NCBI GenBank assembly: GCA_913020095.1
Contig: CAJWAH010000015.1
Location: 1 to 15,305 of the forward strand
Direction of reading: 5' to 3'
Length of the DNA stretch: 15,305 bases
Origin: an uncultured Synechococcus sp.
Lineage (GTDB): Bacteria; Cyanobacteriota; Cyanobacteriia; PCC-6307; Cyanobiaceae
Of the stretch, positions 1-15,305 are shown piece by piece. Made by a program: the position numbers and the translations under genes. The notes beneath the pieces are model-generated. The model worked only from the letters and a program-made list of their open reading frames with translations, was not told the DNA's origin and ran no database searches. Positions within the stretch are counted from its first letter, which is position 1, and each line of letters opens with the position of its first letter.

Positions 1-426
1 CGTTGCCGCATCGACACCGAAACGGCGACAGCTCAGCGGGAGCGGCTTAGCGAGCGCTGCTGCGAATTTGCGATGGTCAATCCCAACCGGGTGGGGCTCA
101 AGGCCCGCTACAGCTGGATGGCCGTGGCCGAGCGCGAGCAGGGCAATGATCCACTCCAAGCCATTCGCAAGCTGGATTTGAGCAGCGGCGAGAGCCGGGT
201 GTGGAGCGCCGCTCCGCGGGGCTTTGTCAGTGAGCCGGTGATGGTGGCGAACCCTGGCGCGACAGCCGAAGACGATGGCTGGGTGCTGTGCCTGGTCTGG
301 AACGGGGCACGCTGCGCCAGCGATCTGGTGATCCTTGATGCCAGCACACTCAACGAGCAGGCCGTCTTCGAGCTGCCCTTAGCGATTCCCCACGGCCTGC
401 ACGGCAGCTGGGTGCAGGCCAGCTGA
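1..426 (+). CDS. Carotenoid cleavage oxygenase (RPE65/CCD family), C-terminal part, 5' end outside window
   Basis: The frame is open from the first base and encodes the last 141 residues of a carotenoid oxygenase. These non-haem iron enzymes split conjugated double bases of carotenoids or apocarotenoids into aldehydes or ketones. What is seen: the late-domain pattern FVSEPVMV followed by a GATAEDDGW block, then SDLVILDA, and the terminal HGLHGSW, whose second His matches the fourth iron-binding histidine of the family. The protein ends five residues after that motif, as family members usually do. The ATG at 73 is an internal methionine, not the start. The gene converges on the BCCT transporter gene with zero gap: the two stop codons lie side by side in TGATCA at 424-429. 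Substrate and cleavage position cannot be read from this fragment. Family assignment is firm. Confidence 0.93.
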   Translation, partial: RCRIDTETATAQRERLSERCCEFAMVNPNRVGLKARYSWMAVAEREQGNDPLQAIRKLDLSSGESRVWSAAPRGFVSEPVMVANPGATAEDDGWVLCLVWNGARCASDLVILDASTLNEQAVFELPLAIPHGLHGSWVQAS

Positions 427-1968
427 TCAGCCCTGCTGCCGCTGCCATTCGCGCCAAGCCAAGCGCGGGGCTGTCCACAGTGTGGTGAGCACGAGCGGGG
501 TGACAGGAACCGCCGCAATCACGATGAAGGCCTGCAGCGCATTGATGCTGGTGCTGTCGCCCAGGCTGGTGCCAATGCGCAGCAACACCAAGGTGAGGCT
601 GCCGATCATCAGCGCCCAGAACAAGCGCAACACAGCAGGCGGCTGGCTCTGGCCGCTCACCACCATCGCGGCGGCATAGCTCATCGAATCGGCGCTGGTG
701 GCCATGAACAGCACCACCAGCAGCAACCCGGCTGGAATCAGCAACCAGGCCAAGGGCAACTGGGTGAGGATCGCCAGCAGCGCTGCAGCAGCGCCGCTCT
801 CCGCCAAGGGCCCCGTGACCGAACCTTGATTGGCCAGCTCCAGATAGAGGCCGCTCCCCCCCAGCAAGGTGAACCAGATGTTGGTGACCAGCGGGCACAA
901 AATCGCCACCGCCAGCACCAGCTCGCGCACGCTGCGCCCGCGGCTTACCCCAGCGGTGAACAGGCCCATCAGCGGGGCGTAGCCCAAAAACCAGCCCCAG
1001 TAGAAGACCGTCCAACCATTGACCCAATTGCCGCTGGCGTCATTGGAGGCCAGGGCCATCTGGGGCAAACGGCTGAGGTACAGCCCAAACGAACTGAAGA
1101 AGTGCTGAGCCAGCCACAACCCAGGACCAAGCACCAACAACGCCGCACCCAAACCGAGGGTGAGCCAAACGTTGAGCTCCGAAAGCCATTTGATGCCCTT
1201 TTGGATGCCGCTCACCGTTGAGGTGGCAAACACTGCCGTCAGCAGCACCACCACCAGCGACTGCAAACCAGCGCTATCGGCCAAGCCCGGCAACTGCCCC
1301 GCAGCATTGCTGAGCTGCAGGGAGAGGAAACCAAGGGGGCCGACGGTGCCGGCGATGGCTGCCACCACCGAGAGACCATCGCAGAGATGGCCGAGGGTCC
1401 CATCCACCCAACCGCGAGGCACCAGGGGGACCAGCAAACTGCGGGGCCGCAGGGGTTCACCGCGGCGCTCCAGCACCGAAAACGTGATGGTGACCGTGGT
1501 GGCCACCAGCGCCCAGGCCAAAAAGCCCCAGTGCAAAAAGCTGACCGCCAAAGCTGGATCAACGGCGGCTTCAGTGCTGCCGCTCACGCCTTCGAAATAG
1601 GGGGCCGGGGATTGGAAATGGAACAGCGGTTCAGCGGCCGACCAAAACACCCCGCCACCGGCCAGCAGCGTGCAGATCAGCACGGCGCACCAATCAAACA
1701 ACTTGAGGCTTGGCTTGGCCTCAGCTCCGCCGAGCTTGAGCCGGCCGACTGGGCTAATGGCCAGAGCCGCTGCAATCAGGAACAGCAGCGCCACCATCCA
1801 TTGCCAGGTGCTGCCCAGCCAATTGCTGATGATGGCCTTACCGCCTTCGGTGAAGGCGGTGGCCAGCTTGAGATCCACCGCGGCCATCACCAGAAACACC
1901 AGCAGGGGGCCAGCGCCCACCCACAGCGGCGGCTGCTTCAGCCAGTGACGATCAGATTCGGACGGCAT
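427..1968 (-). CDS. BCCT-family transporter (betaine/carnitine/choline type)
   Basis: Inner-membrane symporter of about 513 residues with 12 hydrophobic segments, the LeuT-type fold of the BCCT family. Visible family marks are AEPLFHF (112-118), the TM8 box WTVFYWGWFLGYAP (319-332), SRGRSVREL (342-350) and TSADS (424-428). The Phe-x-x-Thr-Ser at 421-425 matches the second sodium site of BetP, which suggests Na+ coupling. Of the four BetP aromatic-box residues, two Trp are kept (147, 152) while Tyr197 is Val155 and Trp374 is Phe327, so the substrate may not be glycine betaine. The N-terminal tail is short and there is no long charged C-terminal tail, which argues against a BetP-like osmosensor. 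The start at 1968 is chosen because a longer reading to 2043 adds 25 residues deep inside the oxidase gene. From 1968 the overlap is 17 bases, with a GGAG 12 bases upstream. It is the last gene of the four-gene set. Confidence 0.92.
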   Translation of the reverse strand: MPSESDRHWLKQPPLWVGAGPLLVFLVMAAVDLKLATAFTEGGKAIISNWLGSTWQWMVALLFLIAAALAISPVGRLKLGGAEAKPSLKLFDWCAVLICTLLAGGGVFWSAAEPLFHFQSPAPYFEGVSGSTEAAVDPALAVSFLHWGFLAWALVATTVTITFSVLERRGEPLRPRSLLVPLVPRGWVDGTLGHLCDGLSVVAAIAGTVGPLGFLSLQLSNAAGQLPGLADSAGLQSLVVVLLTAVFATSTVSGIQKGIKWLSELNVWLTLGLGAALLVLGPGLWLAQHFFSSFGLYLSRLPQMALASNDASGNWVNGWTVFYWGWFLGYAPLMGLFTAGVSRGRSVRELVLAVAILCPLVTNIWFTLLGGSGLYLELANQGSVTGPLAESGAAAALLAILTQLPLAWLLIPAGLLLVVLFMATSADSMSYAAAMVVSGQSQPPAVLRLFWALMIGSLTLVLLRIGTSLGDSTSINALQAFIVIAAVPVTPLVLTTLWTAPRLAWREWQRQQG

Positions 1969-3139
1969 CACGCTCTCGGCTCCAGCAGGACAGATCAACG
2001 GTGGGGGCCAAGCCCATGGCCAGGCGGGCGAGGGAGGTGCCAATCAGGGGCGCAAACTTGAACGCCTGACCGGATCCGCCACTGAACAAACTCAGCCGCG
2101 GCGCCAGACGATCAAGGACGAAATTCACATCGGAAGCCATCGAATAGGGGCTGATCACCGTTTCAACGCGCTCCTGCACACCGCTGAGGTTGTTGAACAG
2201 GAAGTCATCGAGCAGCTGCACCAACCGCGGCGGCGGATCCTTGCGCATGGCATTGGGTTCGGCCACCCGCAGCTCTTCGGGAGCCCAATCGATGCCGGCC
2301 TTGATCTTGGGGCGGCCGTCCTCGGTGCGGCTCAATGCTGGGAAGCCGTAATACAAGCCTCCGTCGTCGCCTTGGGCCTGCTGGAAGCAGAACCACTGGG
2401 GATAGCGATCGGCCTGAGCAGGATCCACGGTGTAGTGAGCCCACAACATGGGCCACACCTCCAGCTTGGGGGCCAAGCCATGGGGAGCAAGCAGCAGCTG
2501 GCTCCAAATGCCGCAGGCCACCACCACCTGGTCAGCCTCGATCTGTTCACCGCTCTGCAGGCTGACGCGCCCTGAGCTGGGATCGACAGCCTGAACAGGG
2601 CAATGCTCGATCAGCTGATGACCTGCGGCGCGCGCTGTCCGCGTCCAGTGGGCAATCACCCGGTCACTGCGAACAGCTCCGGCTGTGGGTTCAAACAAAC
2701 CACTGAAATCAGCCCGGGGCTTGAGCGGGAAGCGATCAGCAATCTGCTCAGACGTGAGGGCTTCGTAGGGAATGCCCTGGTCATCCATCACCCGGCGTGC
2801 CCCCGGGATTGAACCTTCGATCGTCTCCTCATCCCAGCTTTCGCCGTAGAAGAGCAGGCCATGGGTCTGGCGCAGGATTTCGCCTGAACGCTGTTCCTCT
2901 TCGCGCCAAAGGCGATTGGCCTCTTGGGCCAGCCGGCAAAGCACCGGATCGGAATACATCTCCCGGAACATGCGGGATTCGCCGAAACTGCTAGCTCCGG
3001 CGTGGGCCAGGGTTTTGGCCTCCAGCAACACCACATCGCTGACCCCCTGCTGGGCCAAGGACGAGGCGCAGCTGAGACCTGCCATGCCGCCACCAACGAT
3101 GACGACCGCAGCGCGGCTGGGAATGGAGACGTTGCTCAT
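1952..3139 (-). CDS. FAD-dependent amine oxidase, monomeric sarcosine oxidase / N-methyltryptophan oxidase-like
   Basis: Flavoprotein of 395 residues in the DAO superfamily. Monomeric sarcosine oxidase relatives oxidise N-methyl or cyclic secondary amino acids with O2, giving an aldehyde or imine and H2O2. Visible are the dinucleotide motif GGGMAG (16-21) with Glu40 ending the second strand, the SFGESRMFR block (51-59), Lys280 where MSOX has its oxygen-activating Lys265, and SGGSGQAFKF (353-362). Arg59 and Lys361 align with MSOX Arg52 and Lys348, which hold the substrate carboxylate, so an amino acid substrate is likely. The covalent-FAD Cys315 of MSOX aligns with Ser330 (ISPYSM), and His45 with Phe52, so FAD is probably bound non-covalently. 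Its ATG overlaps the stop of the dehydrogenase gene as ATGA (3136-3139), and its own 3' end overlaps the transporter start. The exact substrate is not determinable; alignments were made by eye. Confidence 0.88.
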   Translation of the reverse strand: MSNVSIPSRAAVVIVGGGMAGLSCASSLAQQGVSDVVLLEAKTLAHAGASSFGESRMFREMYSDPVLCRLAQEANRLWREEEQRSGEILRQTHGLLFYGESWDEETIEGSIPGARRVMDDQGIPYEALTSEQIADRFPLKPRADFSGLFEPTAGAVRSDRVIAHWTRTARAAGHQLIEHCPVQAVDPSSGRVSLQSGEQIEADQVVVACGIWSQLLLAPHGLAPKLEVWPMLWAHYTVDPAQADRYPQWFCFQQAQGDDGGLYYGFPALSRTEDGRPKIKAGIDWAPEELRVAEPNAMRKDPPPRLVQLLDDFLFNNLSGVQERVETVISPYSMASDVNFVLDRLAPRLSLFSGGSGQAFKFAPLIGTSLARLAMGLAPTVDLSCWSRERDAVRI

Positions 3140-4191
3140 GCCGAAAGAACAAAACTCAGGCCAATGGGGTCCTGGCTACTGCCGGCAGCCACATGCATCA
3201 ACGCTTCACCAACGCTGAGGCCCCGATCCCGCTGGGCCAGGAAATCGCCGGCGCGATCGCGAACAGCCTGGCGCACAAAGGCGTACACCTGCTCTGGGCT
3301 GGCCTGTTTCCAAGCCTCCGGGGCAAAGCGCTCAATGGAGTCAGCGATCACCGCTCCGGCATTGACCAAGGGATCGGGCAGCACCCGAACCCCGCGCTGC
3401 CGCATCTGCTCAGCCAAGACCGGGTCAGCGAAGGGGGCATTGGCGGCCGGGACCACCGACTTGACCTGAAGTGCTGCGGTGATCTCCTCTGTCAGCAGAC
3501 CGGAGATCGAGCACGGCAACAGCAAGTCGAGCTCCTGGGTCCACCACGGCGAGCCTGGATCCAAGGGGGTCGCCCCACTGATCTGGGCCCGAGCCGAGTC
3601 CATATCCACCGTGAAGACCTGCCAACCGCTGGCGATAAGGGCCTTCGCCACCGGTCCGCCAACGGCGCCACAGCCATGCACCAACGCCCGACCAGCAGGT
3701 GCCTGATCCAGGCTGTCCTGCAACACCGCTTCCACGGCACCAATCGTGCCGAATGCGGTGGCACTGCTGGCATCCACCGGGCTGCCAACCGCGGCCAACA
3801 CATGGGGCGTTAGAGCGGTGAGCCGCTCCATGTCCTCAAGGCTGGTGTTGAGATCGCAGCCAGTGATCATGGCGCCGCCAAGCGACTCCAGCAGCTCCGC
3901 GGTGACATTGATCAGCTCGTCTTTCACCGCCGCCGGATTGGCAGCGCGAGCCACCACTTTGCCGCCGGCAAAGCCTGTGCCATACAAGGAATGCTTGTTG
4001 GTCATCAAGCTGGCCAAGCGATGGCCATCGGCTTTGCAGGTGGCGTCGCTGTCGTAGGAGAGCAGCCTCAGGCCGCCATTGGCCGGCCGCTCAGCATCGG
4101 TGTTCTCGGCCACCACAAAAACCGAGAGGTGATCCGAGATGTGCTCCGCCAGCACGCGCACCTGTGGACTGCTGGAATCGGCACTCCTCAT
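3136..4191 (-). CDS. Glu/Leu/Phe/Val dehydrogenase family amino acid dehydrogenase
   Basis: NAD(P)-dependent enzyme of 351 residues, close in length to leucine dehydrogenase (about 365). The family interconverts an L-amino acid with its 2-oxo acid and ammonia. Seen in order: GGLRLLSYDS (39-48); Lys66 in MTNK and Lys78 in GGK, matching the substrate and catalytic lysines; Asp113 in GCDLNTSLEDM, matching the catalytic Asp; a Rossmann turn GCGAVG (173-178); acidic residues 196 and 198 ending the next strand, favouring NAD+; and NAG (277-279). Active-site residues are intact, so it should be a working enzyme. An upstream in-frame ATG at 4242 lies inside the methyltransferase gene. The start at 4191 makes an ATGA overlap (4188-4191) with that gene's stop and has AAGG seven bases upstream. 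Cyanobacterial ScyB, a tryptophan dehydrogenase of scytonemin synthesis, is in this family, so aromatic substrates are possible. Specificity is unknown. Confidence 0.88.
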   Translation of the reverse strand: MRSADSSSPQVRVLAEHISDHLSVFVVAENTDAERPANGGLRLLSYDSDATCKADGHRLASLMTNKHSLYGTGFAGGKVVARAANPAAVKDELINVTAELLESLGGAMITGCDLNTSLEDMERLTALTPHVLAAVGSPVDASSATAFGTIGAVEAVLQDSLDQAPAGRALVHGCGAVGGPVAKALIASGWQVFTVDMDSARAQISGATPLDPGSPWWTQELDLLLPCSISGLLTEEITAALQVKSVVPAANAPFADPVLAEQMRQRGVRVLPDPLVNAGAVIADSIERFAPEAWKQASPEQVYAFVRQAVRDRAGDFLAQRDRGLSVGEALMHVAAGSSQDPIGLSFVLSA

Positions 4192-5228
4192 GCGGCCACC
4201 TTTTCCATCATTTGATGGTGCTCGACGTAATCGAGGCTCCATTCATCAGGAGCCGCAGCAATGCGTTTCTCCAGGCGCCCGTAAAGCTCATCAGCGGCGG
4301 CATCGCCAGCGGTTGACGCAAAGCTGTGACGACTCCAGCTGCGGATGGTGGCCATTAAGCCAGAGGCGAAGGAGGCCGTATCGCCGTTCTCCTTCCAGCG
4401 GCGGCGGTAGGGGCACTCCACATAAACCGTGCGCTGATCAATCAAACGCAGGCCGTTGCGGTAGGCCGCTGACGTGGAGTCCTTCAGCGGAGCCATGAAC
4501 TCATCGGGTGACTTGTAGAAGTTCATCACCGTGGCAGCGCGGTAATGATCAGCGCTAATGCGCCCTTCATCGGCCATCTCTCGCCAGATCTGGTGCAACT
4601 GGTCGTGCACATTGCGGGTGCGGCCGCCGTTGTGGCCCAAGTAGAGGCCGGCCTCGTCGCGGGAGAGGTTCACCGTCAACAAACGGCCACCAACCTGCAG
4701 TTCCTTGGAGCGCAACTCCAACAGGGCATTCCAGTCGCGCATGGCCTGCGCCGTGAAGCGACTCAAGGCCTCAGCATCGCCAGAGGCCTGAACATGGGTG
4801 TGGGTATCGAGAGCGCCTGCCGACTGACTCAACCAGTGCATGGCGGTGGCGGTAAAGCCAAAGCTGACCGAACCCGGGGCCATCAGCGGCTCGTAAAAGC
4901 TGCGGCAACTCACCAGCACCGTTGGGCTGGGAGGACGCGACAACTGCAGCGCCACATTGGCGGCCAGAGCGAGGTTGTCGTTGCTGGGCAGGTCATTGCC
5001 CACCAAGGTGTAGTGGGCCTGGGGTTGGCGCTCGTGGAGGCGGTCCAACACGGAGTTCCACAACCCAACAGCCGTACCGCCGTCGGCAGCGCCGTAATCA
5101 ATCAAGGTGTAAGCGCTCTGCTGCGGCAGAGCGTCAACACAAGCGATGGCCCAGTCCGAAGCAGCTTCGATACAGCGCAAGGCGCCTTCGGTCTGCGCGC
5201 TGTAACCAGTCGTCATGGCGATGGCCAT
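4188..5228 (-). CDS. SAM-dependent methyltransferase of the SABATH (Methyltransf_7) family
   Basis: Protein of about 346 residues resembling the SABATH methyltransferases, which in plants methylate the carboxyl of small acids (salicylate, jasmonate, indole-acetate) or the nitrogens of xanthines. Seen in order: GYSAQT near the N-terminus (plant SYA-x-NS), the SAM loop DYGAADGG (44-51), NDLPSND (78-84, plant NDLPxND), SFYEPL (110-115), MHWLSQ (130-135, plant HWLSQ) and GGRLL (180-184). The salicylate-binding Trp151 of Clarkia SAMT is kept as Trp132, while Gln25 becomes Ala16. First gene of the four-gene set. The start is uncertain: the ATG at 5228 has GAGG five bases upstream. The ATG at 5216 and a TTG at 5252 are alternatives, the latter lying in an inverted repeat. 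It lies 77 bases after rdgB, so it may have its own promoter or be read from the upstream genes. Substrate unknown. Confidence 0.85.
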   Translation of the reverse strand: MAIAMTTGYSAQTEGALRCIEAASDWAIACVDALPQQSAYTLIDYGAADGGTAVGLWNSVLDRLHERQPQAHYTLVGNDLPSNDNLALAANVALQLSRPPSPTVLVSCRSFYEPLMAPGSVSFGFTATAMHWLSQSAGALDTHTHVQASGDAEALSRFTAQAMRDWNALLELRSKELQVGGRLLTVNLSRDEAGLYLGHNGGRTRNVHDQLHQIWREMADEGRISADHYRAATVMNFYKSPDEFMAPLKDSTSAAYRNGLRLIDQRTVYVECPYRRRWKENGDTASFASGLMATIRSWSRHSFASTAGDAAADELYGRLEKRIAAAPDEWSLDYVEHHQMMEKVAA

Positions 5229-5246
5229 GATCTCCTCGGCGTCAGC

Positions 5247-5266
5247 GGCCAACCTAAAGATTGGCC
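5247..5266. repeat. Inverted repeat GGCCAA-N8-TTGGCC upstream of the methyltransferase operon
   Basis: A perfect 6-base inverted repeat (5247-5252 and 5261-5266) with an 8-base A/T-rich spacer lies 19-38 bases upstream of the chosen ATG at 5228, just before its GAGGAG ribosome-binding region. It could be an operator half-site pair or an RNA hairpin near the ribosome-binding site. Nothing in the sequence distinguishes these, and chance is possible. Confidence 0.4.
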
Positions 5267-5296
5267 CTCAATCCCGCCGCCGACTGTCTTGTTTTG

Positions 5297-5315
5297 TGAT
5301 CAGCGCTACTGATCA
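5297..5315 (-). repeat. Inverted repeat TGATCAG-N5-CTGATCA over the rdgB stop codon
   Basis: A perfect 7-base inverted repeat (5297-5303 and 5309-5315) with a 5-base loop that contains the rdgB stop codon (5306-5308). In the transcript it would form a compact hairpin at the end of rdgB. It is not followed by a U-run (the next bases read CAAAACAAG), so it is not a standard intrinsic terminator. It could slow transcription or protect a 3' end between rdgB and the methyltransferase set. Confidence 0.4.
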
Positions 5316-5908
5316 TTTAGAAGTTTGTGCAGCTCGGGCTGGAGCAGCGCAAAGGCGCGGCCGCGGTGACCAACGGCTTGCTTTTGCTCAGGCGCCATTT
5401 CGGCAAAGGTCAACGCGGTGCCCTCAACTTCAAAAATCGGGTCGTAGCCAAAGCCTGAATCACCCCGAGGGGCCGTGGTGATCACACCCGCGCAGCAACC
5501 CTCTACTTCAAGCAGCACCTGCCCCGATGGATCAGCGAGGCAGAGCGCAGCGCGAAATTCGGCGCGGCGATCGTCCCGGCCGCCCAGCTCGCCCAACAGC
5601 CGCGCAATCCGTTCTGGATCACTGGCGGCGTAGCGGGCGGAATGCACACCTGGGGCGCCCCCCAGAGCCATCACGCACAGACCGGAATCATCGGCCAAAG
5701 CCCATGCTCCGCTTGCCGCGGCAACAGCCACGGCTTTGAGCCGCGCATTCTCAGCAAAGGTGAGACCTGTTTCCTCAACCTCCATGCCATCGGGTTGGGG
5801 CTGCAGCTCCAATGGCAGCTGCTGCAGGAGCTCCCGAAATTCGCGCACCTTGCCGGCATTACCGCTGGCAATCACCAGCGTTCGGCTGCGGCCATGAGGA
5901 ATGCTCAT
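5306..5908 (-). CDS. rdgB: XTP/dITP diphosphatase (RdgB/HAM1 family)
   Basis: House-cleaning pyrophosphatase of 200 residues that hydrolyses dITP, ITP and XTP to the monophosphates, keeping deaminated purines out of DNA and RNA. The family pattern is complete: SGNAGK (15-20), ETGLTFAENARLKA (46-59), ADDSGL (72-77) with the metal-binding aspartates, GAPGVHSARYA (84-94), GDSGFGYDPIF (149-159), and HRGRA (181-185). The serine usual before that last motif is Gly180, a mild change. Its ATG overlaps the stop of the phosphohexose mutase gene as ATGA (5905-5908), implying translational coupling. A GGA lies upstream within GCGGAAGC. The product is cytosolic and probably a homodimer, as is known for the family. 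Confidence 0.95.
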   Translation of the reverse strand: MSIPHGRSRTLVIASGNAGKVREFRELLQQLPLELQPQPDGMEVEETGLTFAENARLKAVAVAAASGAWALADDSGLCVMALGGAPGVHSARYAASDPERIARLLGELGGRDDRRAEFRAALCLADPSGQVLLEVEGCCAGVITTAPRGDSGFGYDPIFEVEGTALTFAEMAPEQKQAVGHRGRAFALLQPELHKLLNDQ

Positions 5909-7356
5909 GCTGCTTCCGCTAACTCTCTGGCCCAGGCCAAGACTTCGGCCACACGCTCAGCATTGGGGGCTTCGCAGTAGAGGCGCAGCAGTGGCTCGGT
6001 GCCGGAAAACCGCAGCATCAGCCAGTGGCTGGGTCCCAACCGCAGCTTGACGCCATCGGTGCGAATCACCTCCTGCACCGCCATGCCAGCAACGCTGCTG
6101 GGCGGCGCGTCAGCCAACTGCTGCTCGAGGCGCTGGCGGCTGTCCATGCCTGACAAGCGCAAATCCAAGCGGTCGTAATGGCTGCCGCCGCCGCAACGCT
6201 GCTGCAATGCCTCGAGGCGCGCACCCAAGGGCTGGCCGCCCTCCACCAAGGCCTCCAGCAGCAGCAGCGCTGCAAAAGCAGCATCACGCTCGGGCAAGTG
6301 CATGCCAAAGCCCACACCCCCTGATTCCTCACCACCCACCAGCACCTGGCCGCTGAGCATTTCGCTGGCGATGTATTTGAAACCAACCGGCTTTTCAACC
6401 ACCTCACGGCCAAGGTCTTCGGCGACGCGCCGCATCAAATCCGACCCGCTCACGGTCTTGATCACCTTGCCGGGCAGATTCCTGGCCCGGGCCAAATGAT
6501 CAATGAGCAGCGGCATCAGCAATTGAGTACTGCAGTAACGCCCTTGCTCGTCGATGGCGGCAATGCGATCGCCATCGCCATCAAAAACAATGCCCACTGC
6601 AGGCTGACCAGCGGCTGTGCTGGCTTTCACCTGGGCAATCAACTCGCTGAGGTAAGGAGCAAGCGGCTCCGGTGGATGGCCGCCAAAGAGGGGGTCCCGC
6701 TGGGAGCGAATTTCGCTCACCGCCTCCCCGAGCAGCGCCGGCAGGCCGCCAGCGGCCGAGCCATGCATTGGATCCACGATCACCTTGAGCCCCAAGCTCT
6801 GCAGCCCATGGCGCAGCGCATTGGTGTCCATCGCACCGCGCAGGCCTTGGAGGTACTCAGCCCAGCCGTCAAAGCATTCGGTTTCCCCGGGTTCGGGCAC
6901 GGTGATGCCGCCGGCCTGTAGGCGCCGCTCAACGCGCTTGGTGAAATCGCCTTCCACCGAGCCGCCGAAGTGGCCCTTGATCTTGAGGCCAAGCCACTCG
7001 GGAGGGTTATGGCTGGCAGTGATCACCAGAGCGCCGAGGGCACGCCGCTCCACCACCACCCAGCTGCAGGCAGGGGTGGGCAATGGCTCTTGCGCCAACA
7101 GTGGTTCCAAGCCAACTCCGCGCACCGCTGCAGCAATGGCGGCTGCCAATTCCGGCGCCAAAAAGCGGCGGTCGTAGCCGATCACCACGGTGCGGCTCTC
7201 CAGCTCCGGCGGGGCGGAATGGGCTAGCTCCGCGGCGGCAGCAGCGGCCACCGGCAACAGGCGCTCGATGGTGATGTCGACCCCGAGCACACCACGCCAA
7301 CCATCGGTGCCAAAGGCGATGGCTGCAGGCTCCAGGTGCAGGGGTGAGGACGACAT
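5905..7356 (-). CDS. Phosphoglucomutase/phosphomannomutase family protein (alpha-D-phosphohexomutase)
   Basis: Cytosolic phosphohexose mutase of 483 residues that moves phosphate between C1 and C6 of a hexose through a phosphoserine and a bisphosphate intermediate. All four domain signatures are present: FGTDGWRG (15-22), the catalytic-serine loop TASHNP (113-118, Ser115), the metal-binding DGDGDR (259-264), the sugar-binding GGEESGG (341-347) and the phosphate-binding RFSGTEP (449-455). The GGEESGG loop and overall length fit the phosphoglucomutase/phosphomannomutase group better than GlmM, but the preferred sugar cannot be fixed by eye. In cyanobacteria such enzymes feed glycogen and cell-envelope sugars. 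Its ATG overlaps the stop of the upstream metallo-hydrolase-like gene by one base (TGATG), and rdgB follows with an ATGA overlap. Confidence 0.93.
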   Translation of the reverse strand: MSSSPLHLEPAAIAFGTDGWRGVLGVDITIERLLPVAAAAAAELAHSAPPELESRTVVIGYDRRFLAPELAAAIAAAVRGVGLEPLLAQEPLPTPACSWVVVERRALGALVITASHNPPEWLGLKIKGHFGGSVEGDFTKRVERRLQAGGITVPEPGETECFDGWAEYLQGLRGAMDTNALRHGLQSLGLKVIVDPMHGSAAGGLPALLGEAVSEIRSQRDPLFGGHPPEPLAPYLSELIAQVKASTAAGQPAVGIVFDGDGDRIAAIDEQGRYCSTQLLMPLLIDHLARARNLPGKVIKTVSGSDLMRRVAEDLGREVVEKPVGFKYIASEMLSGQVLVGGEESGGVGFGMHLPERDAAFAALLLLEALVEGGQPLGARLEALQQRCGGGSHYDRLDLRLSGMDSRQRLEQQLADAPPSSVAGMAVQEVIRTDGVKLRLGPSHWLMLRFSGTEPLLRLYCEAPNAERVAEVLAWARELAEAA

Positions 7357-8099
7357 CAGTCAGCGCTGAGCTGATAGCAGTGTCCTGGATCGGGATCAAT
7401 GAAGCGGGTGTGCGGGTGCCGGCCAGCCAGCTGCGCTTGCTCCTCATCACTGTTGGCTTTGGCCTGCAGCACCTGCTGCAACAGTCCGCTGTAGGCCACA
7501 TCGCCTCCGGCCGTGCTGGCCAGCAGGTGGGCCGGTGTAAACCGCTCCAGCAGCTGCGGCACCACCGCACGACCCTTCACAAAAGCCCCTGCCACAGGCA
7601 GGCCTAAATCCATCACCGGTGTGATCACCGCCGTGAGGGGCTCGGCCGGCAAGGCCGGATCCAAGAAGCCATGGGGCTCGACATAGAGGCTTTCCCCGGA
7701 GCCGCGCAGCAGATAGCCATTTTCCACCTGGGGCACTGGTGCACCAGCGGTGGCCTGAATCTCGAGCGAACCGCGCTGCAGGCGTTCGCCAGGGCGCAGG
7801 GTGTCGGTCTGAGTGAAACCAAAGCGGCGGGCTTGCTGCACCGCTGCCGCAGAACCCACCACCGGCAGCGCCTTGGGCAAGCGCTCCAAGGTGGCGGGAT
7901 GGGCATGGTCTGGCAGGCCCTGGGTCAGCAGCAAACCATCGAGATCGCCTGGAATCGGCCACTCCCGGGGCAGCGTGCCTTCAAACAACCAACTCGCCCC
8001 ACCAAAACGCAGCGGACCCACCAACCAGGGATCCAGCAACAAGCGCTGGCCAGCGAGCTCAAGCAACCAGCCATTGGCGCCGAAATAGGTGAGCTGCAT
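7356..8099 (-). CDS. Metallo-beta-lactamase-fold protein with a degenerate metal motif
   Basis: Protein of 247 residues with the outline of the UlaG-like metallo-beta-lactamase fold: an N-terminal strand pattern LTYFGANGWLLEL (3-15), LLLDPWL (20-26), and LLLTQGLPDHAHPATL (56-71), where active enzymes read THxHxDH. Here the first two histidines are replaced (Gln60, Leu62) while Asp64-His65 remain and a further His is at 67. Later parts such as YVEPHG and AVITPV also fit the fold. Either metal binding uses a different set of residues or hydrolytic activity is lost. No function is assigned. It is first in the block leading into the phosphohexose mutase gene. It starts 41 bases from the divergent TM0106-type gene, so their promoters must share or overlap this short gap. 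Confidence 0.75.
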   Translation of the reverse strand: MQLTYFGANGWLLELAGQRLLLDPWLVGPLRFGGASWLFEGTLPREWPIPGDLDGLLLTQGLPDHAHPATLERLPKALPVVGSAAAVQQARRFGFTQTDTLRPGERLQRGSLEIQATAGAPVPQVENGYLLRGSGESLYVEPHGFLDPALPAEPLTAVITPVMDLGLPVAGAFVKGRAVVPQLLERFTPAHLLASTAGGDVAYSGLLQQVLQAKANSDEEQAQLAGRHPHTRFIDPDPGHCYQLSAD

Positions 8100-8139
8100 G
8101 GCAAGTGGCCCAGGCGGAGCACCCTTCTAGCTTGAATCG

Positions 8140-9579
8140 ATGGTGCATCCGCTCAGTGACCGCTTGCTGCGCAGCTGGCTGCGTTGCCGGCGCAAAGCCT
8201 GGCTGGATCGCCATGGGGATCCAGCCGAGCGGCTCTGGAACCCGCACCGCGCCCTGCAGCTGGCCGATCGCGAAAAGCGTTTGCAGCAATGCATTGATCA
8301 GCCACTCGAGCGCTGCACTGGCTTGGGGGCTCTGCAACGGGGCGAACCAGCGGTGCGTTTGTTGCTGCTGCGGCGCGACGGCATCTGCGGCCGGCCCACC
8401 TTGCTTCTGCGCAAACCGCAGCCCAGCCAGCTGGGCAGCTTCAGCTACCAGCCCGCACTGCTGCAACCGGGTCGCCACGGCACCCGGGAGCACCGCCTCA
8501 CCCTGGCGCTCTGGGGCTGGCTGCTGGAGCCGGTGCAAGGCACTGCGGCCAGCCAGGGCTGGCTGATCAATCCCCGCGGACAACGCCAACGGCTCAATCT
8601 CCACAGCGGCCTCAACCACCAAATGCAAACCGCCTTGACGCGGCTGCAGCAGGACCTCAAACGCCGCAACCCGCCGCCACTGACCCACGACCGGCGCAAA
8701 TGCACGCTCTGCAGCTGGCGCCGCAGCTGTGATGCGGTGGCCGAAGCACAAGGCGAACTGAGCACCGTGAGCGGCATTGGCGGCAAACGCCAGGAACTGC
8801 TGCAGGAGCTGGGAATCGCGAACCGCCAAGCCCTCGCCGATGCCCCAGGCGACTGGTTGCTGCAACAGCTGGAGGAGCGCGGCATCCAACAACCGGAGCT
8901 GGCCACCGAACTGATCGCCCAAGCGACTGTTCAGCAGCGCGGCATCGCCGAGCCGCTGCAGGCTGGCAACCCCGACCCCTTACCCGAGCTCCATGGGGCA
9001 CCCGGGGTGCTGCTCTACGACATCGAATCGGACCCTGATGCTCGAGACGATTTCCTGCATGGCTTTCTGCCCTTGAGCCGCGGGGCCGATGGCCGCTTTG
9101 AAGATGCTGACAGCGCTCCTTACCGGCCGATCCTGGCCTTGCGGGAGCACGGCGAAGATCGCCTCTGGCAGCGGCTGCAACGCCTGCTTGCAGCACACCC
9201 GGGCTGGCCGGTGCTGCACTACGGCGAAACCGAAGCGATCGCCTTAAAGCGGATGGCCGAGCGCCAAAACAGCGAACCGCCTCAAGGCTTGGTGGATTTG
9301 CACCAGCGCGTTCGGCAGCACTGGCGGCTGCCCGTCGACAGCTACGGCCTCAAAGCCGTGGCCAGCTGGCGGGGCTTTCGCTGGAGCCAACCCACCGCAG
9401 AAGGGGCCCGCTGCGTGTTGTGGTGGCGCCAATGGCGTGAACGCCACCAGCGACACCAACTCGATCAAATCCTTCGCTACAACCGCGACGACTGCCTGGC
9501 CACCTGGGCGGTGGCTCAGTGGCTATCGAACGCTGCCGCCTCCGGCAACGACAACTCCAGCCCAGCAAGCTCCGATTGA
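8140..9579 (+). CDS. TM0106-type RecB-like putative nuclease with RNase H-like domain
   Basis: Protein of 479 residues. The N-terminal part opens with SDRLLRSWLRCRRKAWLDRH (6-25), typical of the TM0106 RecB-like family. Cys16 with Cys188, Cys191 and Cys197 (C-x2-C-x5-C) matches the Cas4/AddB-style four-cysteine Fe-S site. A helix-hairpin-helix-like stretch VSGIGGKRQELL (210-221) follows. The C-terminal part looks like a DEDD exonuclease domain: DIE (294-296), HYGETEA (360-366), DLHQRV (386-391) and YNRDDC (447-452). In the RecB-like domain, the place where I expect GRPD has GRPT (84-87), and the following strand (FSYQPALLQ) lacks the D-x-K pattern, so that nuclease site looks lost. The 3' end overlaps the convergent ygfZ gene by 64 bases. 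The cellular role of this family is not established. Confidence 0.85.
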   Translation: MVHPLSDRLLRSWLRCRRKAWLDRHGDPAERLWNPHRALQLADREKRLQQCIDQPLERCTGLGALQRGEPAVRLLLLRRDGICGRPTLLLRKPQPSQLGSFSYQPALLQPGRHGTREHRLTLALWGWLLEPVQGTAASQGWLINPRGQRQRLNLHSGLNHQMQTALTRLQQDLKRRNPPPLTHDRRKCTLCSWRRSCDAVAEAQGELSTVSGIGGKRQELLQELGIANRQALADAPGDWLLQQLEERGIQQPELATELIAQATVQQRGIAEPLQAGNPDPLPELHGAPGVLLYDIESDPDARDDFLHGFLPLSRGADGRFEDADSAPYRPILALREHGEDRLWQRLQRLLAAHPGWPVLHYGETEAIALKRMAERQNSEPPQGLVDLHQRVRQHWRLPVDSYGLKAVASWRGFRWSQPTAEGARCVLWWRQWRERHQRHQLDQILRYNRDDCLATWAVAQWLSNAAASGNDNSSPASSD

Positions 9580-11491: not shown

Positions 11492-11564
11492 GGGGGTCTA
11501 GCAATCTGGTGAATGCAGCGAACTCATAATTCGCCTTAGGCGAGTTCGATCCTCGCGACCCCCA
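11492..11564 (+). tRNA. tRNA with anticodon CAU (elongator Met, or Ile2 if lysidine-modified)
   Basis: A full cloverleaf can be folded by hand over 73 bases. The acceptor stem is GGGGGTC / GACCCCC (11492-11498, 11557-11563) with discriminator A at 11564. The D arm is 11501-11516, with only three Watson-Crick pairs (GCA/TGC) and a GG in the loop. The anticodon stem is GCGAA/TTCGC with loop CTCATAA (anticodon CAT, 11525-11527), followed by a 5-base variable loop. The T stem is GCGAG/CTCGC with loop TTCGATC. CCA is not encoded. It is not the initiator: the 1-72 pair is G-C and the three G-C pairs of the initiator anticodon stem are absent. Elongator Met and Ile2 share this anticodon, and I cannot separate them by eye. 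Four bases separate it from the next start codon. Confidence 0.93.
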
Positions 11565-13775: not shown

Positions 13776-14771
13776 ATGAAACCAGTCAAGGTGGGCGTGA
13801 TCGGCATCGGCAACATGGGCTGGAATCACGCCCGTGTGCTGAGCCTGTTGCGTGATGCCGAGCTGGTGGGCGTTGCTGACCCCGATGCCGCCCGCGGCGC
13901 CTTAGCCACCGAACAGTTCGGTTGCCGCTGGTTTGCTGACTACAACGACCTCATCGAGGAAGTGGAAGCGGTTTGCATTGCTGTGCCGACCCTGCTGCAC
14001 CACCCCGTGGGCATGGCCTGCCTCAAGGCCGGCGTGCATGTGCTGATCGAAAAGCCGATCGCGGCCAATGAGCAGGAAGCCGGTGAACTGATCGCTGCGG
14101 CTGAACAAGCAGGCCGCCTACTGCAAGTGGGCCACATTGAGCGCTTCAACCCGGCCTTCCGGGAGCTGCTCAACGTGGTGGCCAATGAGGAAGTGGTGGT
14201 GCTGGAAGGCCGGCGCCACAGCCCTCACGCCGATCGCGCCAACGATGTGTCGGTGGTGCTGGATCTGATGATCCACGACATCGACTTGGCGTTGGAACTC
14301 GCTGGAGCTCCGGTGGTGGGATTCGCCGCAGCGGGTGGCCGCAGCAGCGACGGCCCCATCGACTACGTCACCGCCACCTTGAATTTCGCCAATGGCGTTG
14401 CCGCCAGCCTCACCGCCAGCAAGATGAGCCACCGCAAGGAGCGCTGCCTCACGGCCCACTGCCGCGACAGCCTGGTGGAGGCGGACTTCCTCAACCGCAA
14501 CCTGCGCATCCACCGGCGTGCCCATGAGTCCTATTCCGCCACCCGGGGGGAACTGCTCTACCGCCACGACGGCTTCATTGAAGAGGTGAGCATCTCCCCC
14601 ACCGAACCGCTCTATGCCGAGCTCGAGCATTTCCTGCAGTGCGTTCGTGGTGCGGCCAAACCAGCCGTCGATGGTCTGCAAGCATCCCGGGCTCTACGGC
14701 TCGCTGACCTGATTGAGCAGGCGGTTGAGCAGCCGCAGCAGAGCTTGCTGCAGCTCGATACACCGCTCTAG
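13776..14771 (+). CDS. Gfo/Idh/MocA-family NAD(P)-dependent oxidoreductase
   Basis: Cytosolic dehydrogenase of 331 residues acting on a sugar or sugar nucleotide. Seen: a Rossmann motif GVIGIGNMGWNHARVL (7-22), VADPD ending the second strand (33-37), the family hallmark LIEKPIA (90-96) with catalytic Lys93, GHIERFNPAF (119-128), and DLMIHDIDLAL (163-173) with the second catalytic His-Asp pair. The HIERFNPAF motif is common in members that oxidise the 3-OH of UDP-N-acetyl sugars (WlbA/WbpB-like), which would link it to envelope polysaccharide, but specificity is inferred only. An AGG abuts the ATG. It ends in a four-base stop overlap (CTAG, 14768-14771) with the convergent GH15-like gene. Confidence 0.9.
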   Translation: MKPVKVGVIGIGNMGWNHARVLSLLRDAELVGVADPDAARGALATEQFGCRWFADYNDLIEEVEAVCIAVPTLLHHPVGMACLKAGVHVLIEKPIAANEQEAGELIAAAEQAGRLLQVGHIERFNPAFRELLNVVANEEVVVLEGRRHSPHADRANDVSVVLDLMIHDIDLALELAGAPVVGFAAAGGRSSDGPIDYVTATLNFANGVAASLTASKMSHRKERCLTAHCRDSLVEADFLNRNLRIHRRAHESYSATRGELLYRHDGFIEEVSISPTEPLYAELEHFLQCVRGAAKPAVDGLQASRALRLADLIEQAVEQPQQSLLQLDTPL

Positions 14772-15305
14772 GCCGCAATCGCGCTGTCGACCAATTGGTG
14801 CAAGGCCCCAACGCAAAGCTCACGGCAGCGGGTTGGTGAGGCCCGGTAGAAGCCGTCCCAAGCAGCGGCCTTGTGGGAGCCGTAGTCACTGAGCCGGTGG
14901 CTGGGGTCCTGCTCCAACCAACCCAGCCGCACGGCATGGCCAATCACCACATCCAAAGCGATGTGGTCGTCAAAGCAAACATCGGGGTTGGCCTCAAAAA
15001 AGGCCATCAACGACAACAGCGCTTCGATCGAGAGTTGGCGGTATTCCGGCGCCTCGATCTTGCTGAGCAGGTGCTCCACCAACACCGCAAAGTTCTGCTC
15101 ATCCGGCGTTTTCTCAGCCAACAGAGCGCTATCCAAGCGATTGCGGCGCTCCAACTTGTCGCCAATCAACAGCCCGCGGCAGTGCTGCAGCAGCCCCCAC
15201 ACACCGGGATAAAAATTGCGCGGCACCCACTGCAAGGCCCCGCGGCGCACCCGGTGCTGCAGCCAGCACCCCCCGGTGGGTTTCTCCGCCACCGGCGCAG
15301 GGGCT
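14768..15305 (-). CDS. Glycoside hydrolase family 15 / phosphorylase-kinase-alpha-like protein, C-terminal part, 5' end outside window
   Basis: The frame is open to the right edge, so the apparent GTG start at 15292 is internal and the gene is cut by the window. The 178 residues visible resemble the C-terminus of the long GH15/PHK-alpha-like proteins of cyanobacteria: LAEKTPDEQNFAVLVEHLL, KIEAPEYRQLSIEALL, FDDHIALDVVIGHAVRLGWL and KAAAWDGFY. The helical pattern fits the (alpha/alpha)6 barrel end and following region. The catalytic glutamates, if present, would lie outside the window, so activity cannot be judged. Family members are annotated as glucoamylase-like or as regulators of glycogen breakdown; the role in cyanobacteria is not settled. 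Stop codon overlaps that of the Gfo/Idh/MocA gene. Confidence 0.85.
   Translation of the reverse strand, partial: APAPVAEKPTGGCWLQHRVRRGALQWVPRNFYPGVWGLLQHCRGLLIGDKLERRNRLDSALLAEKTPDEQNFAVLVEHLLSKIEAPEYRQLSIEALLSLMAFFEANPDVCFDDHIALDVVIGHAVRLGWLEQDPSHRLSDYGSHKAAAWDGFYRASPTRCRELCVGALHQLVDSAIAA

What the first reader, a model, noticed from the sequence alone, without database searches (positions are those of the whole stretch)
427..5228. Four-gene coupled set: SABATH methyltransferase, amino acid dehydrogenase, sarcosine-oxidase-like enzyme, BCCT transporter
The stop/start junctions are ATGA at 4188-4191, ATGA at 3136-3139 and a 17-base overlap at 1952-1968, so the four proteins are probably made in fixed proportion. 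Together they suggest a compact pathway for an amino acid or N-methyl amino acid: uptake, oxidation of a secondary amine, interconversion with a 2-oxo acid, and methylation. I know of no named pathway with this gene set. It is distinct from the glycine/sarcosine N-methyltransferase route to glycine betaine. It could be catabolic (nitrogen from methylated amines) or make a methylated signal or solute. The family assignments are firm; the pathway is inference.
Basis: partly seen in the sequence, partly recalled or inferred. Interest (0 to 1): 0.8.

Follow-up and report, generated by a model that had tools for sequence, protein, structure and literature searches.

The report
Likely homarine-making genes in marine cyanobacteria
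Four linked genes in a marine Synechococcus look like a recipe for homarine, a widespread ocean metabolite whose making is poorly understood: three enzymes that would turn lysine into it and a transporter that would take it back up.

Summary
The four genes and their overlaps are real. I read them not as a catabolic N-methyl-amino-acid set but as a pathway for homarine (N-methylpicolinate): a lysine 2-dehydrogenase gives piperideine-2-carboxylate, a NikD-like oxidase aromatizes it to picolinate, a SABATH enzyme N-methylates it, and a BCCT carrier takes the betaine up. Evidence: the oxidase groups with NikD (97/93), closed NikD is its best fold match, and it shares with NikD an insertion after E101 plus D276, unlike the 19 other family members compared. 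Methyltransferase and oxidase occur in the same 52 of 300 Cyanobiaceae genomes, beside the dehydrogenase in each. The trio is also linked in a myxobacterial MAG, Okeania and Microbulbifer; Okeania has a glycine-betaine-type binding protein beside it instead of BCCT. WH7803, reported with homarine, carries all four genes; WH8102, the larger producer, could not be examined. A 2021 paper calls homarine biosynthesis uncharacterized; my open-access searches found no later report, but a 2026 paper on homarine catabolism could not be read. No substrate or product is shown. The lysine step is weakest: one pocket residue supports a polar side chain, another depends on the alignment.

The parts
4188..5228 (-). 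SABATH-family methyltransferase; proposed picolinate N-methyltransferase (homarine synthase). Invariant W132 of the family motif MHWLS at 4833-4835.
   Evidence: Pfam PF03492, 72 bits; profile of 16 relatives hits SABATH enzymes of known structure, including the plant N-methyltransferases 6lyh, 6lyi, 2efj and 2eg5; family alignment. N-methylation of picolinate is inferred.
3136..4191 (-). ELFV amino acid dehydrogenase; proposed L-lysine 2-dehydrogenase (product cyclizes to piperideine-2-carboxylate). Catalytic K66, K78, D113 (roles recalled); N38 (4078-4080) stands where leucine dehydrogenases have Leu.
1952..3139 (-). NikD-like FAD oxidase; proposed piperideine-2-carboxylate oxidase giving picolinate. 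E108 (2816-2818) and D284 (2288-2290) align with NikD E101 and D276.
427..1968 (-). BCCT (betaine/carnitine/choline) transporter; proposed homarine uptake or retention carrier.
   Evidence: Pfam PF02028, 430 bits; best PDB hits: trimethylamine transporter, DddT, choline transporter, BetP; co-inherited in one genus. Substrate is inferred.
4188..4191 (-). ATGA overlap, methyltransferase stop / dehydrogenase start.
3136..3139 (-). ATGA overlap, dehydrogenase stop / oxidase start.
1952..1968 (-). 17-base overlap oxidase / BCCT; seen in 5 of 30 loci, those closest to the window.

Best explanation
The four genes make and retain homarine (N-methylpicolinate), a betaine-type compatible solute. (1) The ELFV dehydrogenase oxidizes L-lysine at C2; 6-amino-2-oxohexanoate closes spontaneously to piperideine-2-carboxylate. 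(2) The NikD-like oxidase removes four electrons and aromatizes it to picolinate. (3) The SABATH enzyme moves a methyl group from SAM to the ring nitrogen, giving homarine. (4) The BCCT carrier takes homarine up from seawater or recovers leaked homarine. Shown: families, linkage, co-inheritance, NikD-type residues and placement, and that one carrier strain (WH7803) has been reported with homarine. Inferred: all substrates, the order of the steps, N- rather than O-methylation, and what BCCT carries.
Against: No enzyme has been assayed. The oxidase lacks NikD's FAD-linking Cys in most rows (Ser 50, Asn 1, Cys 2, cut 2 of 55) and has Gln for NikD Trp355. NikD is a long branch (2.35), so its placement could be an artefact. 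The lead of NikD over sarcosine oxidase is 4 bits by sequence; by fold it holds for the closed form (2 Z), while the open forms (45.4-45.5) tie with sarcosine oxidase. Which residue of a paralogue falls in the E101 column depends on the gap: in the family-only alignment L009 has Glu there, though not the insertion. The second dehydrogenase pocket position (D284 against LeuDH V294) holds only in an ungapped reading; MAFFT and hhalign put a 2-residue gap there. The nearest methyltransferases of known structure are carboxyl O-methyltransferases. WH7803, the only measured strain I could examine, makes about 100 times less homarine than WH8102. One genome has the dehydrogenase alone (G034). Prochlorococcus carriers have no BCCT in the fetched loci. 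Diatoms and a haptophyte also hold homarine and are not explained by this cluster.
Confidence: 0.74

Rival explanations
1. Same first two steps, but the SABATH enzyme esterifies the carboxylate (methyl picolinate), or the end product is picolinate or a further derivative; the transporter imports another betaine and is linked for another reason.
For: Closest SABATH structures are carboxyl O-methyltransferases (fatty acid O-methyltransferase, 112 bits with the profile); the Trp of the motif MHWLS is kept (its carboxylate-binding role is recalled).
Against: A betaine-type transport protein is linked in two unrelated forms (BCCT in Synechococcus and a myxobacterial MAG, OpuAC protein in Okeania). 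Homarine itself is the reported Synechococcus metabolite. SABATH enzymes that N-methylate a pyridine carboxylate exist.
Confidence: 0.09
2. The dehydrogenase acts on another amino acid (ornithine, tryptophan, leucine); the oxidase aromatizes or oxidizes another cyclic imine (ornithine would give pyrroline- then pyrrole-2-carboxylate); the product is another N-methylated solute.
For: Best sequence hits of the dehydrogenase are leucine dehydrogenases, a Glu/Leu/Phe/Val dehydrogenase and a tryptophan dehydrogenase; lysine specificity rests on one clear pocket residue.
Against: Leu/Met at position 40 of the five LeuDH/TrpDH compared is Asn in this family, unlike a hydrophobic pocket. NikD-type residues point to a six-membered imino acid. 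No such alternative metabolite is known to me in Synechococcus (recall, not searched).
Confidence: 0.1
3. One reading: uptake of a methylated amine by BCCT, oxidation of an N-methyl amino acid by the oxidase, deamination by the dehydrogenase, with an unexplained methylation.
For: Family-level resemblance to MTOX and sarcosine oxidase (NCBIfam N-methyl-L-tryptophan oxidase 180 bits, below its cut-off of 257).
Against: The His at the sarcosine-oxidase H269 position (catalytic role recalled), present in both sarcosine oxidases compared, is Asp here as in NikD. A methyltransferase in the same operon would undo the oxidation. Carriers without an adjacent BCCT exist (Prochlorococcus).
Confidence: 0.05

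Closest known systems
NikC/NikD route to picolinate in nikkomycin biosynthesis (Streptomyces)
   Same: Lysine to piperideine-2-carboxylate to picolinate; the second enzyme is a sarcosine-oxidase-family flavoprotein with the same E101/D276 residues.
   Different: The first enzyme there is an aminotransferase; here an ELFV dehydrogenase stands in that place. Picolinate goes to a CoA ligase there, to a methyltransferase here. The FAD-linking Cys and W355 are not kept in the cyanobacterial oxidase.
Coffee trigonelline synthases (CTgS1/2), SABATH nicotinate N-methyltransferases
   Same: SABATH family; N-methylation of a pyridine carboxylic acid to a betaine.
   Different: Plant enzymes acting on nicotinate; their sequences were not aligned here, so the relationship is known only at family level.
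ScyB tryptophan dehydrogenase and leucine dehydrogenases
   Same: ELFV fold, catalytic Lys/Lys/Asp kept.
   Different: ScyB model score 87 against a cut-off of 600; Asn at the Leu/Met-40 pocket position.
BetP / DddT / TMA-type BCCT transporters
   Same: BCCT family.
   Different: Below the cut-off of each of the five NCBIfam BCCT models it hits (e.g. glycine betaine 297 of 650 bits).

Membership tests
NikD (piperideine-2-carboxylate oxidase) | Residues R53, E101, Y258, D276 and K358 (roles in NikD recalled; letters compared here) | tested here: met
   All five in 16 of 16 cluster rows chosen; in the family alignment R 55/55, E 55/55, Y 54/55, D 54/55, K 53/55, the rest gaps of cut fragments. 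E101 plus insertion and D276 in 0 of 19 other family members
NikD (piperideine-2-carboxylate oxidase) | Covalent FAD through Cys321 (role recalled) | tested here: not met
   Ser in the window; over 55 rows Ser 50, Asn 1, Cys 2 (both Microbulbifer), gap 2. The claim made is a NikD-like reaction, not that it is NikD
NikD (piperideine-2-carboxylate oxidase) | Trp355 at the ring (role recalled) | tested here: not met
   Gln in 16 of 16 and in 53 of 55, gap in 2
NikD (piperideine-2-carboxylate oxidase) | Conversion of piperideine-2-carboxylate to picolinate | not testable with these tools
   needs purified enzyme
Monomeric sarcosine oxidase / N-methyltryptophan oxidase | His269 of MSOX (catalytic role recalled) | tested here: not met
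   Asp in 16 of 16; His in both sarcosine oxidases compared. MTOX itself was not in that alignment
Monomeric sarcosine oxidase / N-methyltryptophan oxidase | NCBIfam score over curated cut-off (NF008425, TIGR01377) | tested here: not met
   180 of 257 and 141 of 480 bits
SABATH methyltransferases | Pfam PF03492 over gathering score | tested here: met
   72 bits against 29.8
SABATH methyltransferases | N- rather than O-methylation of picolinate | not testable with these tools
   both kinds are hit by the profile
ELFV amino acid dehydrogenases | Catalytic Lys, Lys, Asp (roles recalled) and both Pfam domains | tested here: met
   Pfam 53 and 31 bits; residues invariant in 22 rows, aligned with LeuDH
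Lysine 2-dehydrogenase | Polar/acidic side-chain pocket (LeuDH L40 and V294 positions, recalled specificity determinants) | tested here: inconclusive
   L40 position is Asn in 49 of 50 rows, the other an undetermined letter. D284 at V294 needs an ungapped reading; MAFFT and hhalign place a 2-residue gap
BCCT transporters | Pfam PF02028 over gathering score | tested here: met
   430 bits against 27

The most novel reading that the evidence does not exclude
This is a bacterial homarine biosynthesis operon: lysine, via a nicotinamide-dependent lysine 2-dehydrogenase and a NikD-type aromatizing oxidase, to picolinate, then SABATH N-methylation. For these organisms it would replace the quinolinate route assumed so far, with spread among distant marine bacteria and repeated pairing with betaine-type transporters.
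Probability: 0.7. Interest if true: 0.9.

Novelty: new variant of a known kind. Interest (0 to 1): 0.82.

Why it matters
Homarine is a widespread osmolyte in marine particles and a labile carbon and nitrogen source for other microbes; published concentrations were later corrected about 25-fold downwards. Heal et al. 2021 state that its biosynthetic and degradation pathways were uncharacterized and take it to come from quinolinate by decarboxylation (section 8). Boysen et al. 2021 state that lack of genetic information on its synthesis and degradation limits inference of its sources and sinks (passages). A named gene set would let homarine production be read from marine genomes and transcriptomes, and gives three enzymes that can be tested directly.

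Tried and rejected
Catabolism of N-methyl amino acids: rejected on the oxidase residues and on co-inheritance with a methyltransferase.

Fixed-proportion translation of all four: the 17-base overlap with BCCT is confined to 5 of 30 loci, so kept only for the three enzymes.

Asp284 of the dehydrogenase as a lysine-amino-group ligand: attractive, and the Asp is invariant in the 22 rows of A3, but two aligners put it elsewhere; kept as inconclusive. A3 counts from the second codon, so the single-residue counts labelled 37, 65, 77, 112, 283 and 286 are one place off; the Asn count is the line labelled G38, and the rest was read from the printed alignment.

Viral carriage: 20 candidate stretches in IMG/VR, none a relative. 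Promoter scan of 1-6000: no sigma-70-like site; 8 terminator-like matches (4.6 expected, sd 2.0), all inside the four genes.

Choice of rows: for the 36-row oxidase alignment I took 16 of 55 cluster rows, 15 of 30 loci (two are the cluster's own oxidase, 13 match mainly part of the profile), 2 paralogues and 3 PDB chains as printed; MTOX was not included. All 55 cluster rows were then counted.

Cyanobacteria beyond the family: 23 of 388 class genomes match, all in four Cyanobiaceae genera. Okeania and Hydrocoleum were found only by the named-genome scan, which sees only proteins with one of two exact heptapeptides, so absence there says little. Of its 46 loci, L037, L052 and L053 lack one or two trio genes and L049, L055 and L056 hold one in part; each gap lies at a contig end.

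WH8102 could not be examined: it is not among the 46 named loci, and none of the 34 genomes of genus g5 is a single contig of its size (2.4 Mb, recalled).

Papers: 0 papers with homarine plus biosynthesis, picolin and methyltransferase, 0 with homarine and NikD; homarine with Synechococcus 6 papers; with picolin and lysine 4 papers, seen as listings only; homarine since 2019, 40 of 70 listed; N-methylpicolin with cyanobacteri 2 papers; homarine with transporter and gene terms, 15 of 330 listed. The library is open-access only. Ferrer-Gonzalez et al. 2026 (Nat Microbiol, homarine catabolism) was seen only as a citation in PMC13390433 (passages) and is not held; it may discuss biosynthesis.

Full report
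What is there. The window is contig C15 of a 74%-complete genome (G000), closest to Synechococcus RCC307 among the named loci (methyltransferase 99%, oxidase 97% identical). On the minus strand, after a phosphomannomutase and a Ham1/RdgB gene, lie a SABATH methyltransferase (MT, 4188-5228), an ELFV dehydrogenase (DH, 3136-4191), a DAO-family oxidase (OX, 1952-3139) and a BCCT transporter (427-1968).

Is it one unit? Yes. At strict thresholds (E 1e-60 for OX, 1e-50 for MT and DH), OX is found in 52 of 300 Cyanobiaceae genomes, MT in 52 of 300 and DH in 53 of 300. The OX and MT sets are the same genomes; DH adds one (G034). In all 52 the three lie side by side (coordinates read from the three tables). 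Within genera the trio comes and goes together: in g18, G251 and G292 have all three and G022 none; in g10, G118 has all three and G014 none. In genus g5, BCCT is in 19 of 19 OX carriers and in 0 of 4 OX non-carriers that both searches covered (two of the four are only 77-79% complete). These genomes are related, so the counts are not independent events.

Across bacteria. A scan of named genomes found 46 loci. Of 30 Synechococcus-type loci, including RCC307 and WH7803, 29 hold MT, DH and OX (one with OX cut) and 29 hold BCCT; the two exceptions, L037 and L055, end there. Ten Prochlorococcus loci, including strains MIT9201 and MIT9401, have OX, 10 DH and 9 MT, and none has BCCT in the stretch fetched. 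A Myxococcales MAG has all four (46-57% identity), two Microbulbifer have MT-DH-OX, and Okeania L050 and Hydrocoleum L049 have MT and DH on the strand opposite to OX (one Microbulbifer MT and the Hydrocoleum DH are cut by a contig end; Okeania L052 ends within OX). In Okeania L050 the gene beyond DH is an OpuAC-type glycine-betaine-binding protein (147 bits); in Microbulbifer L051 an MFS carrier precedes MT. So two unrelated betaine-type transport proteins are linked to the same three enzymes.

What the methyltransferase is. SABATH, by Pfam and by profile search; its nearest solved relatives are carboxyl methyltransferases, but plant N-methyltransferases of the family are also hit. Coffee trigonelline synthases, which N-methylate nicotinate, belong to this family (PMC8877179, passages). 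Picolinate N-methylation would be a small step from that; it is inferred.

Fit to known chemistry and metabolites. Nikkomycin biosynthesis runs lysine, piperideine-2-carboxylate, picolinate with an aminotransferase and a monomeric-sarcosine-oxidase-type enzyme (PMC4021061, passages). N-methylpicolinate is homarine. Heal et al. found homarine in both Synechococcus strains tested, WH8102 and WH7803 (section 8); the published correction (whole text) lowers the values 25-fold, to at most 18 mM and about 0.2 mM, because the standard was contaminated with picolinic acid. They state that homarine has no characterized biosynthetic or degradation pathway. WH7803 has the complete cluster (L029). WH8102 could not be checked here. 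Homarine in diatoms and a haptophyte is left unexplained.

Conclusion. The best single explanation is a homarine biosynthesis and retention operon. Confidence 0.74 overall: highest for 'one pathway unit' and 'NikD-like oxidase', lower for lysine as the start and for N-methylation, lowest for the transporter's substrate. Literature novelty is limited by an open-access library and by a 2026 catabolism paper that is not held.

Noticed in passing
L057 (G034) 7549-8673, minus strand: A 58%-identical copy of the dehydrogenase stands alone, overlapping the start of a helicase-like ORF on the other strand, in a genome without the methyltransferase or oxidase at the thresholds used; two similar database proteins are labelled Cyanobium. 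It may use its product for something else.
   Followed up: partly
G264 and G261 (methyltransferase), G295 (BCCT): Single genes of the cluster appear broken in these relatives (two frames, or one in-frame stop), either pseudogenes or sequencing errors. Described only.
   Followed up: no
L038-L046, L053 (Prochlorococcus): Three-gene version at about 48-55% identity without BCCT, patchy among genomes of genus g18, with no rdgB match in the fetched stretch; separate acquisition or long divergence.
   Followed up: partly
L051, L056 (Microbulbifer): Three-gene version in a gammaproteobacterium with a Cys at the FAD-linking position of the oxidase; in L051 it is preceded by an MFS carrier and a LacI-type regulator.
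   Followed up: partly
window 14768-15292, minus strand: ORF matching the C-terminal domain of phosphorylase b kinase (PF19292, 245 bits), otherwise known to me mainly from eukaryotes (recall).
   Followed up: no
window 73-426: C-terminal part of an RPE65-type carotenoid cleavage dioxygenase, convergent with the BCCT gene; the rest appears to lie off the contig.
   Followed up: no
window 11492-11564: tRNA-Met (CAT) between an ORF without a Pfam match and a glutathione S-transferase-like gene.
   Followed up: no
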